64,000 nt of DNA from contig NC_033630.1 of NCBI RefSeq assembly GCF_001540865.1, positions 8,464,083-8,528,082 on the forward strand, given 5' to 3'. Below, piece by piece: positions 26,600 to 55,205 of the stretch. The stretch comes from Ananas comosus (Eukaryota > Streptophyta > Magnoliopsida > Poales > Bromeliaceae). Each line of letters opens with the position of its first letter. The first letter of the stretch is position 1. The notes beneath the pieces are model-generated. The model was not told the origin of the DNA, searched no databases, and saw only the letters and a list, made by a program, of their open reading frames with translations. The position numbers and the translations under genes were made by a program.

Positions 26600-27156
26600 G
26601 GTCCTTGTACCGAAATAAGAACCCGTGTACCGGTACAAGGTCTGCGGCCGAGCGGAATATAACCGGGTATAACGCTTCGATCTTTCTCAAAACTCAATCG
26701 TTTTCCAAAATTTTTGGTTCTGTGAGCTCCAGAGACTCTCCTTCATTCGTTCTACACATTTTTCCTTTGGATTTGTAAGTTTTTAGCATCAAATTTGTGA
26801 GTTTTATCCCGATTTTGCTATTTTCATTGCTTTTGCGGGATTAGGGTTTGATCTCTGTTCTAATCCGTTTTTGATGCAATTTTTTGCTATAGATCAGTGT
26901 CTTAGGCTATTATCTTGCTTGTAGAACACTTTAACAACATCAAAACAAGTTATTTTTCACTGATCTAAAATGTATGTTCTAATGTGCATGTAATTTCGGG
27001 ATTTTTCAAAAAGTTCGATTTTTGCTGAAATATTTTGCATGATCTGGTTAGAAATAGCTTTTGTATGCATTCTAATGTATTTAGAAATTTTTTTGGCTAT
27101 TTTTACAGATTTTTTTCAGAAATTATGTTCATGTATGCAATTTTTGATATAGGAAA
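26600..27156 (+). promoter_or_regulatory. Candidate internal promoter and leader intron for the post-pol ORF
   Basis: A TGTACCGGTACA site (ACCGGT at 26629-26634) with a half-site (CTTGTACCGAA) near 26605 is followed by TATA-like ATATAACC/GTATAACG (26657-26674). A short leader then runs to a donor-like ATTT/GTAAGT (26775) and an acceptor-like GATATAG (27146-27152) just before the ATG at 27157. The deduced intron is about 378 nt. Sirevirus II has the same order of parts with a 399-nt interval. The same ACCGGT flavour is used in this element's LTR. Confidence 0.5.
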
Positions 27157-28611
27157 ATGGCATTTTTGCTCGTACTGGTGCTTTTGGTGCTTATGGCTGG
27201 GAGACGAAGCCGTGGTGGTGGTAGAGGTCGTCATGGTGCTTCTAAAAGGACACGTACCACTGAAGAAGCGTCCGGGTTTGATCCGGATTATCAGGAGAGC
27301 TCCCCTGAAGAATCTGAAGAACCCATTGCGCGACTTGACAAAGGCAAAGGTTTAGCTGGCGAATCATCTCACAGTGGTGGTTCTCGTACTCGTGAGGGAC
27401 GTTCAAAACAAGCTGCAGAGGTTCCTCCAGCACGGCGAAGGTTGTTTGCATCAAAGTCGTGCATAGCTGAACGTTTTGTGAACTTCCAGGATCTGATTCG
27501 GGCGGTTCCTGATTTTGGACGATTACTACAGCGCGCGCCTATTGAGCCTGTTGGACGGGTTCCTGCGAAGGCTCCTTTCTGTGTAGAACTCATTAGGGAG
27601 TTCTATATGAATGGAAAGGTGCTTGCTGAAGATGATGAAACAGGCACGTTTATCTTCGAGACTGTTGTGCGTCAGAGGAGATTTCCAGTTACTCCCTATG
27701 ATATTGGAGAGATCTTGGGGATGCATGTGGACACTTCAGGTCTTCTCTATACTTCAGGAGGATTTCAAGCAGCAACTCACCTGGATATGGTTCTTGGAGC
27801 TATATGCAAAGCCGGTGTTTACATGACTCATGGTTACATTGAATCCAAGGACTTATTACCTGAGTATCACTTGCTATCCTTGGTTATGAGCTACAATGTT
27901 CAACCAACTATCGGCACAAAGAGGATCCGCTGGGAGAGATTAGTGTTGCTATATCTACTTGGTCATCCCGAGCAGGCTCGTGGGTTGAACATCAACATTC
28001 CATTTCTGATCTGGCAAAGGATGATTCACGTAATTCAGGGTGCTACTCGACGGGATCTACTACCATTCCCTGTTCTGATTACGAGGATTCTTCAAGCAAA
28101 TGGAGTGGATACATCTTGTGACAAATATGATGTTGGCCTTGGGCCTATTGACTCAGTGACTTTGGCTAAGTCTGTTAGCACTCTCAAGTCATTTCATCAG
28201 ACCAAAGGGGCACCTCCTGAAGCATCTAGTCCAGCACCTCCACCGAGAGCAGCTTCTAGCTCTGCTCCTCCGCCTACATCTCGAGGGAGTTATGATATTT
28301 CATCTAGTTCAGGGGGAGCAACGACGTTGGAATCAGTTAAGAACGATTTGCGAAAATTAAAGAAGAAGGTGAACAACATTGGAAGGAAAGTTGAGTCCGG
28401 CATCAAAAAGTTTGAGTTAAGTATCAAAAGATTGATGGATAAGATGGGGTGTAGACATGATGATATTTGGGAACCTACTCCATCTTCTACTTCGTATCAG
28501 CGGTCATCTTCACGACATCCTCTCATTCCACCGTCTGGTGATGCTCCTGAGGCTGGAGGTTCTGGAGCTGGTGCTGGAGATGATGATGATGATGATGAGG
28601 ACACGGAGTGA
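27157..28611 (+). CDS. Post-pol (env-position) ORF of Sirevirus I, plant transposon-protein-like, 484 aa
   Basis: Uninterrupted, 484 codons. Residues 1-12 (MAFLLVLVLLVL) form a short hydrophobic leader, followed by an Arg/Gly-rich basic stretch (about 13-35) and an acidic/Ser region to about 90. The core, about 95-340, has FVNFQDLIRAVPDFGRL, FCVELIREFYMNG, RRFPVTPYDIGEILGM, RWERLVLLYLLG and NINIPFLIWQRM. This resembles the 'putative plant transposon protein' domain (Pfam Transposase_32 type); that assignment is from memory of the family pattern. A Pro/Ser linker leads to a coiled coil (about 395-435, ending IKRLMDKMGC) and a Gly/Asp-rich acidic tail. A homologous, broken ORF is at 41944-43106 plus 54367-54623. 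It occupies the position of the env-like gene of some Sireviruses; an envelope function is not shown. Confidence 0.85.
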   Translation: MAFLLVLVLLVLMAGRRSRGGGRGRHGASKRTRTTEEASGFDPDYQESSPEESEEPIARLDKGKGLAGESSHSGGSRTREGRSKQAAEVPPARRRLFASKSCIAERFVNFQDLIRAVPDFGRLLQRAPIEPVGRVPAKAPFCVELIREFYMNGKVLAEDDETGTFIFETVVRQRRFPVTPYDIGEILGMHVDTSGLLYTSGGFQAATHLDMVLGAICKAGVYMTHGYIESKDLLPEYHLLSLVMSYNVQPTIGTKRIRWERLVLLYLLGHPEQARGLNINIPFLIWQRMIHVIQGATRRDLLPFPVLITRILQANGVDTSCDKYDVGLGPIDSVTLAKSVSTLKSFHQTKGAPPEASSPAPPPRAASSSAPPPTSRGSYDISSSSGGATTLESVKNDLRKLKKKVNNIGRKVESGIKKFELSIKRLMDKMGCRHDDIWEPTPSSTSYQRSSSRHPLIPPSGDAPEAGGSGAGAGDDDDDDEDTE

Positions 28612-28800
28612 TTTCTTCGTCGAGCTTAGTCTCTTTCTTTCATTGTATTTAATGTTTAGGATGATGTTTTAGATTTGCTTGCTTATCTTTCTGTAGTATG
28701 TTTTTACTTTCGTTTTAGGCCTGTAGCTATGACTAGACTACTCTCATGTTTTTCTAGTATGTTTTCTCTTTCTATTTGCTTTCTTTTGGCAATTTTTGAC

Positions 28801-29187
28801 AAAAAGGGGGAGAGCGTAGATGAAGGGGGAGAGCATGGATGAGCAGGCTTTGACACTGAAGCAGAGGATGATAAGTTCAAGAACAAAGGGGGAGATGTGA
28901 ACAAAGGGGGAGAAGGTATAAGAATATAGTGCTAATCATTTTTGACATGAAGTGTTTTGCAGAAAATCAAGACTTCAAGACTCCTGTCTAAACTTCAAGA
29001 CTCCTAGTTGCGTCTAAGTCATAGAGTCTGTTTTAGGAGTTTTGATGTAATTTTGAGTTTCATATTGTATTTGGATTGCACGCGAGGGGTTCGATGTTTT
29101 GGTGATGACATTGAACTTCGTTTTTTCTTTAAATTGTAATTTGTGAGTTTATGTGTGTTTTGTCACGAAATTGCCAAAGGGGGAGAT
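28801..29187 (+). promoter_or_regulatory. Multiple polypurine tracts before the 3' LTR
   Basis: Five G5-type tracts occur: AAAAAGGGGGAGAG (28801), GAAGGGGGAGAG (about 28822), CAAAGGGGGAGAT (about 28884), CAAAGGGGGAGAAGG (about 28902) and CAAAGGGGGAGAT immediately before the LTR (29175-29187). Polypurine tracts prime plus-strand synthesis; multiple copies are characteristic of Sireviruses. Confidence 0.85.
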
Positions 29188-53756: not shown

Positions 53757-54330
53757 TCCTCCCCTCCTTAAAAGGAGTTTCGTCCTCGAAACTAATTGGA
53801 TTCTTTACTTTAACTTAAATTTTTACCTCGCTCCTCGAACAAATAAGGGTGGTGTCTTCTCATCAGATCCTCGAGTTCCCAGGTGGCCTCACGATCATCG
53901 TGATTGCTCCACCTAACCTTCACGTAGGAAATTTCTCGATTCCTCAACTTTCGCACCTCTCGGGCGATAATTCCTACCGGAAACTATTCATAGCTCAAGT
54001 CTCCTTGAAGTTCCGGCGGTTCATATAGCATCACATGCTCCAGGTCATGAATGTACTTGCGGAGATTGGAGACATGGAACACATTGTGTACGTCAGCGAG
54101 CTTTGGCGGCAAAGCGAGTTGATAAGCCACCGTGCCAACTCGCTCTAATATTTCATAGGGTCCAATATATCGGGGACTCAATTTTCCCCGCACTCCAAAC
54201 CGCTTCACACTCCGCATCGGTGAAACCTTCAAGAATACGCGGTCACCCACCGCAAACTCTATATCTCGTTGGCGCCTATCCGCATAGCTTTGCTGTCTTG
54301 ACTGCGCCGTGAGCAATCTTTTGCGAGCAA
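53757..54330 (-). pseudogene. pol: Second, truncated E4-type integrase C terminus
   Basis: A polypurine tract and chromodomain region (53830-53980, with a stop near 53984) are followed by an open frame to about 54330 with RKRLLTAQSRQQSYADRRQR, LKVSPMRSVKRFGVRGKLSP and YEILERVGTVAYQLALPPKL. It is about 95% like 45938-46510. It is cut at ATTTGCTCGC, where a short LTR end begins. Confidence 0.88.
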
Positions 54331-54366
54331 ATGGTGACAAATTGGTATCGGTCCCGGGGTGTGACA
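54331..54366 (+). mobile_element. Outer gypsy LTR, right end
   Basis: CAAATTGGTATCGGTCCC followed by GGGGTGTGACA matches the family B LTR terminus at 30480-30509 in plus orientation. It ends exactly at the right CCTTT duplication (54367-54371), pairing with the left end at 43112. Confidence 0.7.
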
Positions 54367-54623
54367 CCTTTCCTTTTCCTTTCTCTTTATCTTTTTTGTA
54401 GCTGCGGGCGCTTTACCCTTTTTCGTTGAAAGCACTTTCGGTGTAAGTTCTTCCCAATCGAGTTTCTCAGCTTCAGATTCTTCTCCCTCATCGCCCGGCA
54501 CATACTCACTACCCTCATCGTCCGGTTGTTGCTCAACCGGTTGTTAGCCGATGAACGTTGTCGTTTGCCTCTACGACCACCACCGCCCATAAGAAAAACA
54601 AGCACGAGTAGCCAGGAATACAT
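54367..54623 (-). pseudogene. Post-pol ORF of Sirevirus II, N terminus
   Basis: From the ATG at 54623: MYSWLLVLVFL hydrophobic leader, MGGGGRRGKRQRSS basic stretch, a one-base frameshift near 54555, then acidic DEGSEYVPGDEGEESEAEKL and basic KGKAPAATKKIKRKEKER, ending at the CCTTT duplication. The order and composition match residues 1-60 of the ORF at 27157. The continuation at 43106 is offset by one base, so the frame was already broken or has since decayed. An acceptor-like TTTAACAG lies 14 bases before the ATG. Confidence 0.8.
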
Positions 54624-55205
54624 GTTTAAAAGGCACCTGTTAAACACAATAATGTATACATATTGAACATAAAAATAATTAAATTTTGATTTTAGAAGCT
54701 TTAGCAAGTTGATATGCAATATGCTAGATGATCCAAGGGCCACATAATCATGAAAATCATGGACAAATCATACAACAAAAAACAGGAAAAACACATATTT
54801 TTGAAAAAAAATTGAAAAACTAAGGTTTTGATGGTAAAAACTTAGCAAAATCAACCAAACAATCGTATTAAAGTATGGAATAATGCATGAAAATCCTGAA
54901 TAACATGTTTAGAGGTAAGAACAGGGCAAATATGGAGAGATTCAACAACATAATGAGATCAAACCTCAAAAATCTGAAAATAAAGCACAATTTTGGATTA
55001 TAAGGCAACAAAGAAATAAAATCCGAAACTCTTACCAAAAACACGTGTAAATCGATGGAGAAAAGAAGCAAAATCACCCTGGGAAAGTTAGAAGCTCGGG
55101 AGAGAAGTTTGATAGATTTGGTAAAGTAAAAAAAAAAAAAACTGCAAAACCCTTATATAGGTTCGGGCGAAGGGACTGGTCTCTCCAAGGCTGGGACCGG
55201 TCCTA
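54624..55205 (-). promoter_or_regulatory. Candidate internal promoter and leader intron, Sirevirus II
   Basis: On minus: GGGACCGGTCCC (55194-55203), a decayed partner GACCAGTCCC about 20 bases on, then a textbook TATA box CTATATAAGG (55151-55160). A leader follows to the donor-like TTTTG/GTAAGAG (about 55035), and an acceptor-like TTTAACAG (54637) precedes the ATG at 54623. The interval of about 399 nt is close to the 378 nt in Sirevirus I. The ACCGGT flavour is that of this element's own LTR. Confidence 0.55.

What the first reader, a model, noticed from the sequence alone, without database searches (positions are those of the whole stretch)
26600..55205. Internal promoter of the Sirevirus post-pol ORF appears to copy the LTR's own regulatory word
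Both Sireviruses carry an ACCGGT-centred palindrome upstream of a TATA-like element, a 380-400 nt candidate intron and the post-pol ORF (26629 in I; 55196 in II). Sirevirus I uses TGTACCGGTACA both here and in its LTR (29473-29682). Sirevirus II uses GACCGGTC both here (with a clear CTATATAAGG box at 55151) and in its LTR (40906-41212). Within each element the two sites match in flavour although the elements differ. This suggests the post-pol gene is expressed from its own promoter, driven by the same factor as the genomic promoter. I know of no such arrangement being described for this group.
Basis: partly seen in the sequence, partly recalled or inferred. Interest (0 to 1): 0.85.

Follow-up and report, generated by a model that had tools for sequence, protein, structure and literature searches.

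The report
Repeated promoter word before retrotransposon's extra gene
Two pineapple jumping genes carry, just before their extra 'envelope-like' gene, the same short mirror-image DNA word that sits in their main promoter; this kind of arrangement was published in 2010, but the sequence here also points to a second, spliced route for making that gene's message.

Summary
The words are real. Sirevirus I has TGTACCGGTACA at 26626 and Sirevirus II has GACCGGTC at 55202 (minus strand). Each is repeated in the element's own LTR and is not expected by chance in these AT-rich linkers. Each internal word has a degenerate partner 20-21 bp away, the commonest spacing of the LTR arrays.

The arrangement is not new. 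Bousios et al. 2010 (PMC2829016) reported element-specific CGG-CCG palindromes in Sirevirus LTRs and 5' of ENV, and linked them to an internal-promoter hypothesis. The 'flavour match' rests on two elements, and both flavours also fill gypsy LTRs in this window, so it is weak.

Promoter anatomy is good in II, weaker in I. There is a competing route. A 113-nt noncoding block upstream is 91% identical between I and II, while their post-pol proteins are 36% identical. Its donor lies about 1 kb upstream, beyond the proposed promoter. I favour two routes sharing one acceptor. No transcript data were available; the genome search did not complete.

The parts
25620..30416 (+). Sirevirus I: TG...CA ends with TAGCC on both sides (25615-25619, 30417-30421); 5' LTR cut after about 259 nt, so gag-pol and the 5' LTR promoter are gone
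29188..30416 (+). 3' LTR of Sirevirus I (1229 nt); palindrome words 29474-29675, TATAAATA at 29732
26092..26203 (+). conserved noncoding block in I; candidate GC splice donor (GCAAGT) at 26179
   Evidence: 91% to the block of II
26606..26637 (+). internal word pair of I: half-site TGTACCG at 26606 and full TGTACCGGTACA at 26626, 20 bp apart; the only TGTACCG sites of the internal region
26658..26673 (+). weak TATA-like runs of I (TATAAC twice)
   Evidence: no TATAWA on the sense strand
26775..27152 (+). candidate local leader intron of I, 378 nt
27157..28611 (+). post-pol ORF of I, 484 aa, Pfam PF20167; starts 4 nt after the acceptor
55717..55829 (-). conserved noncoding block in II; reads MEERATTPVVR from 55773; candidate GT donor (GTCAGT) at 55741
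55174..55202 (-). internal word pair of II: GACCGGTC at 55202 and GACCAGTC at 55181, 21 bp apart
55151..55160 (-). CTATATAAGG TATA box of II
54637..55035 (-). candidate local leader intron of II, 399 nt; its acceptor is shared by the gene-model junction
54331..54623 (-). start of the post-pol ORF of II (MYSWLLVLVFLM...); reading frame shifts soon after, then a gypsy element is inserted
41944..42951 (-). rest of the post-pol ORF of II, PF20167
40885..41446 (-). truncated 3' LTR of II with 11 ACCGGT sites

Best explanation
These are the Sirevirus 'repeated motif' (RM) palindromes known from LTRs and from the region 5' of the ENV-like gene, seen here in a short form (one full and one degenerate copy) in two pineapple Sireviruses. 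Most likely the internal pair, with the TATA box behind it, is a promoter or enhancer for the post-pol gene, whose leader is spliced from the local GTAAG donor to the acceptor just before the start codon. The same acceptor is probably also used by RNA that comes from upstream and is spliced at a donor in the 91% conserved block, as in spliced env-like mRNAs of other plant elements. Shown: the words, the spacing, the splice-site sequences, the conserved block, and the gene-model match. Inferred: any transcription start, any splicing in these two copies, and the identity of the binding factor.
For: Words shared with the element's own LTR; 0 and 14 of 20000 random linkers contain them. Partner site 20 or 21 bp away; LTR arrays favour about 20 bp and its multiples, 25 of 29 successive distances in four non-redundant arrays, 0 of 1000 random placements as periodic. 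A GTAAG 100-200 nt after the word occurs in 4.7% and 4.1% of random linkers, and the CTATAWAW box of II in 0.7%. Flanks of internal and LTR words are not similar once the words are masked (18 and 68 of 100 shuffles score as high), so words rather than a duplicated LTR piece are shared. Splicing from upstream: block 91% identical against 36% for the post-pol protein; NCBI model P0013 (LOC109722274) starts with 11 residues identical to the block (best of 100 shuffled peptides: 7 of 11) and continues at the acceptor. 6 of the 13 homologues start at the Met beside the acceptor. Prior reports of RMs 5' of ENV.
Against: No RNA evidence of any kind. Only two elements, both damaged: I lacks its 5' LTR, and II has a frameshift and an insertion in the ORF. 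TATA of I is weak. The linkers hold far fewer RM copies than most published ENV Sireviruses (2 to 18 per element) and do not reach CpG-island GC content (best 0.42 and 0.41). ATG-free leaders are weak support, since 211 of 840 and 236 of 966 windows of the same length are also ATG-free. The partner of I is a half-site with two mismatches in the core. The spacing partly reflects 21-bp tandem duplication. P0013 may be an ab initio gene model.
Confidence: 0.5

Rival explanations
1. No internal promoter: the post-pol gene is expressed only by splicing of RNA started upstream, with the donor at the end of the conserved block (26178/26179 in I, 55742/55741 in II) and the acceptor before the ATG; introns of 974 and 1105 nt. 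The RM words inside that intron are then enhancers or relics.
For: 91% block; donor position kept as GC in I and GT in II, each followed by AGT two bases on; P0013 joins block to acceptor; the conserved AAAGAG motifs lie upstream of the donor, like exonic enhancers (recalled); spliced env-like mRNAs are cited for BAGY2 and Athila.
Against: Does not explain the LTR words, TATA and second GTAAG donor. A block donor alone leaves gag-pol in the message, so another splice or an upstream promoter is needed. A third conserved patch with AAAGAG (26304, 55576) lies inside the intron.
Confidence: 0.3
2. The internal words are not regulatory for post-pol: they are targets of silencing or chromatin factors, or relics of RM spread.
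For: In maize, LTR palindromes are small-RNA hotspots (passages).
Against: Exact flavour and LTR spacing kept at the same place in two diverged linkers; TATA and donor at matching distances.
Confidence: 0.15
3. Chance matches in AT-rich DNA, picked out by the reader.
For: Bare ACCGGT occurs in about 4% of random linkers; TATA and YAG signals are cheap there.
Against: Exact 12-mer in 0 of 20000 and 8-mer in 14 of 20000; RMs 5' of ENV already known.
Confidence: 0.05

Closest known systems
Sirevirus repeated motifs (RM boxes) of LTRs and the 5' side of ENV, Bousios et al. 2010, PMC2829016
   Same: Palindromic CGG/CCG words, one consensus per element, in LTR and upstream of ENV; LTR array 200-400 nt into the LTR and before a TATA box (I: 286 nt in, TATA at 544)
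   Different: Only one full and one degenerate copy per linker here; core is overlapping CCGG (ACCGGT); no CpG island in the linker; clear TATA box (II) and local donor proposed; words shared with gypsy LTRs of the same window
Internal-promoter hypothesis for Sirevirus ENV (Peterson-Burch and Voytas 2002, seen only as cited in PMC2829016)
   Same: ENV expressed from its own promoter
   Different: They found no motifs; here a candidate TATA and leader intron are given, still untested
Spliced env-like mRNAs of BAGY2 and Athila (as cited in PMC2829016)
   Same: Acceptor just before the env-like ORF
   Different: Those are Ty3/gypsy; here the donor would lie in a conserved block after pol
Foamy virus internal promoter with Tas sites in LTR and internal promoter (passages of PMC4929722)
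   Same: Works alike if the internal promoter is real: one factor reads sites in LTR and internal promoter
   Different: No evidence that the post-pol protein binds DNA; unrelated virus family

Membership tests
Sirevirus (Ty1/copia) | PPT octamer AGGGGGAG 10 nt upstream of the 3' LTR, then AT/TG | tested here: met
   I: octamer at 29178, LTR at 29188, AT/TG. II: variant AGGGAGAG, AT/TG
Sirevirus (Ty1/copia) | Several PPT copies in the linker, mostly after ENV | tested here: met
   I: 26036 before the ORF; 28805, 28824, 28887, 28905 and 29178 after it; 28311 lies inside the ORF. II: 55863 before the ORF, none exact after it
Sirevirus (Ty1/copia) | Inverted repeat around the terminal PPT | tested here: met
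   Read by eye: CACGAAATTGCCAA / TTGGCAAGTTTCGTG in I, CACGAAATCGCCAA / TTGGCGGATTTCGTG in II
Sirevirus (Ty1/copia) | Palindromic RM in LTR and 5' of ENV | tested here: met
Sirevirus (Ty1/copia) | TATA box near the middle of the LTR, after the RM array | tested here: inconclusive
   I: TATAAATA at 29732 of 29188-30416. II: LTR truncated before it could be seen
Sirevirus (Ty1/copia) | PBS TATCAGAGC after the 5' LTR | tested here: inconclusive
   Part with the PBS is deleted in I; none assignable to II in the window
Sirevirus (Ty1/copia) | Copia-type reverse transcriptase | tested here: met
   II: PF07727 RVT_2 at 56564-57652. I has no pol left
CpG island at the ENV RM cluster (Bousios 2010) | GC above 0.5 and CpG o/e above 0.6 | tested here: not met
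   Highest 200-nt GC 0.42 (I) and 0.41 (II) in the linkers
Foamy-virus-like dual promoter with own transactivator | Element protein binds both promoters | not testable with these tools
   Structure prediction was not accepted

The most novel reading that the evidence does not exclude
One DNA-binding factor, of the host or encoded by the post-pol gene itself, reads the same helically phased palindrome words in the LTRs of two unrelated retrotransposon superfamilies of pineapple and at a second promoter inside Sireviruses. The post-pol gene then has two expression routes, an internal promoter and a spliced upstream RNA with a highly conserved donor exon, both ending at one acceptor, as a switch between replication and post-pol expression.
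Probability: 0.2. Interest if true: 0.75.

Novelty: new member of a known kind. Interest (0 to 1): 0.42.

Why it matters
How plant env-like genes are expressed has been open for over 20 years, with an internal promoter proposed but not identified (PMC2829016). This window gives exact, testable start sites, donors and one acceptor in a sequenced crop plant. The words in gypsy LTRs also suggest that the RM, called Sirevirus-specific among copia elements in 2010, may be a shared regulatory code of several LTR elements in one genome.

Tried and rejected
Simple LTR-fragment duplication as source of the internal words: rejected, masked flanks are no more alike than shuffles. Flavour match as proof of a shared factor: not accepted, n = 2 and both flavours are common in the window. 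ATG-free leader as proof: too weak. RNA structure of the conserved block: z -2.33 in I (3 of 200 shuffles fold as well), -0.69 in II (49 of 200), undecided; no Rfam match at gathering scores in the window. More copies: viral contigs gave none; no plant DNA collection could be searched. Recombination as source of the shared words between superfamilies: masked blocks show no similarity for I LTR (50 and 13 of 100 shuffles against arrays A and D), but II LTR is borderline against arrays E, C and B (1, 2 and 5 of 100; 26 of 100 against F), so common descent of that array is not excluded. P0014 has an unrelated N-terminus with no good match in the window; not explained.

Papers: PMC2829016 parts 1-5 of 7 plus passages; passages only of PMC3414828, PMC5311732, PMC10760457, PMC6022998, PMC4929722 and PMC6696364; the other papers only as search listings. 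PMC4728375 (maize Sirevirus palindromes) is not held and is known here only from citations.
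Full report
What is there. The window is from pineapple or a very close relative: the post-pol ORF of element I is 96% identical over 74% of its length to A. comosus LOC109712827, and all 6 hits are Ananas. Element I (25620-30416) has Sirevirus marks: PPT octamer 10 nt before the LTR, AT/TG, several PPTs, an inverted repeat around the PPT, a TATA box near mid-LTR. Its 5' LTR is cut after about 259 nt, so only the linker, the post-pol ORF and the 3' LTR remain. 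Element II runs on the minus strand. Its RT lies at 56564-57652, its linker at 56260-54624, its post-pol ORF starts at 54623, is shifted in frame soon after, and is split by a gypsy element; its 3' LTR (from 41446) is truncated at about 40885. Both post-pol ORFs match Pfam PF20167.

The words. ACCGGT occurs 65 times against 8.44 expected, mostly in arrays. The internal words match the LTR words of the same element exactly. In I the only TGTACCG half-sites of the internal region are at 26606 and 26626. In II the only one-mismatch ACCGGT of the linker is at 55175-55180, 21 bp from the full one. In the II LTR the pair 41215/41194 has the same 21-bp spacing and similar edges. In I three one-mismatch cores exist (26220, 26621, 26662) and none of them is the 20-bp partner, which is a half-site.

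Spacing. In four non-redundant arrays 14 of 29 successive distances are 18-23 bp, 7 are 39-43 and 4 are 59-64; the best period is 20.3 bp for neighbours and 10.3 bp for all pairs up to 130 bp, reached in 0 of 1000 random placements (all arrays). This is close to one and two turns of DNA. Part of it comes from 21-bp tandem duplication. The five words of the I LTR are less regular: 66, 22, 17 and 85 bp.

Flavours. The gypsy arrays A and D carry TGTACCGGTACA; B, C, E, F and G carry GACCGGTC. They are linked to each other by BLAST, and the ORFs next to D and F carry the SH3 domain of chromoviruses; the chromodomain passes its cut-off for D and misses it narrowly for F. A and B are homologous on both sides of the array, yet the array itself differs in flavour and cannot be aligned (20 of 100 shuffles as high). 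So flavours change as a block within related LTRs. This gives some weight to the agreement inside each Sirevirus, but two elements cannot prove it. None of the seven gypsy arrays has a TATAWA on either strand in the stretch examined, about 400 bp.

Promoter and leader. II has CTATATAAGG 37 nt after the word; I has two TATAAC. Each linker has one GTAAG between TATA and ATG, at 26775 and 55035. Random linkers show a GTAAG 100-200 nt behind the word in 4.7% (I) and 4.1% (II), and a CTATAWAW box in 0.7% (II). GC rises locally to 0.42 and 0.41 from about 0.2-0.3. The acceptors end 4 nt (I) and 13 nt (II) before the start codon.

The start codon and acceptor. Of the 13 homologues (P0001-P0005, P0012) start exactly at MAF..., the Met beside the acceptor in I; P0013 has the II-type MYSWLLVLV at residue 16; the other 6 start elsewhere.

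The upstream donor. Apart from short patches, the linkers of I and II cannot be aligned (37-62% in 60-column windows downstream of 26320), but 26092-26203 is 91% identical to 55829-55717, far above the post-pol genes (36% protein, 48% nucleotide). P0013, 83% identical to the II protein over 162 residues, begins MEERATTPVVR, which is read without mismatch at 55773-55741 in the block; 100 shuffles of that peptide reached at most 7 of 11 anywhere in the window. Its residues 11-27 then match 54638-54588. The donor is GTCAGT in II and GCAAGT in I. In I the same reading meets a stop right after the ATG, so I would start at MAF. Whether this NCBI model has RNA support is unknown to me.

Reading. Two signals sit in the same linker: a conserved donor exon, and an RM pair with TATA and local donor. 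Both can feed one acceptor. I put the internal RM promoter, alone or together with the spliced route, at 0.5, and splicing alone at 0.3.

Novelty. The core claim was published: Bousios et al. 2010 list 13 of 21 Sireviruses with RMs, 77 of 79 linker copies upstream of ENV, a consensus per element, and support for the internal-promoter idea, with no promoter identified. A search for 'Sirevirus' with 'internal promoter' lists 4 papers; I looked at passages of three of them and found no later proof. What I have not seen in these papers: the RM words in gypsy LTRs of the same plant, the 10.3/20.3-bp phasing, and the conserved donor block. Maize offers a parallel, since its Sirevirus palindrome is also the top motif of Helitron structured regions (passage).

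Noticed in passing
26092-26203 (+) and 55829-55717 (-): 113-nt noncoding block 91% identical between two otherwise unalignable linkers, with repeated AAAGAG motifs and a candidate splice donor; a further conserved patch AAAAGATGCTCAAAGAG lies at about 26294 and 55586.
   Followed up: partly
2208-2363, 15765-16028, 23453-23624, 34199-34351, 37861-37999, 45486-45761, 53324-53580: Arrays of the same ACCGGT palindromes, in both flavours, in gypsy (chromovirus-type) LTRs; in A and B the flanks are homologous but the array is of another flavour.
   Followed up: partly
2208-2363, 15765-16028, 40908-41215, 45486-45761: Palindrome spacing with a period of about 20.3 bp (neighbours) and 10.3 bp (all pairs), as if the sites faced one side of the helix.
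   Followed up: partly
27157-27235 and 54623-54560: Post-pol proteins begin with a short conserved hydrophobic peptide (MAFxLxLxLVLMA or MYSWLLVLVFLM) followed by a G/R-rich basic stretch.
   Followed up: partly
25615-25619 and 30417-30421: Sirevirus I keeps a TAGCC target-site duplication inside a gypsy LTR although most of its 5' LTR and gag-pol are deleted.
   Followed up: yes
10378-13187 and 58676-59840: Two short elements with direct terminal repeats (95% and 96%) and PBS-like sequences on the minus strand (12491, 59398); the second looks like a TRIM.
   Followed up: no
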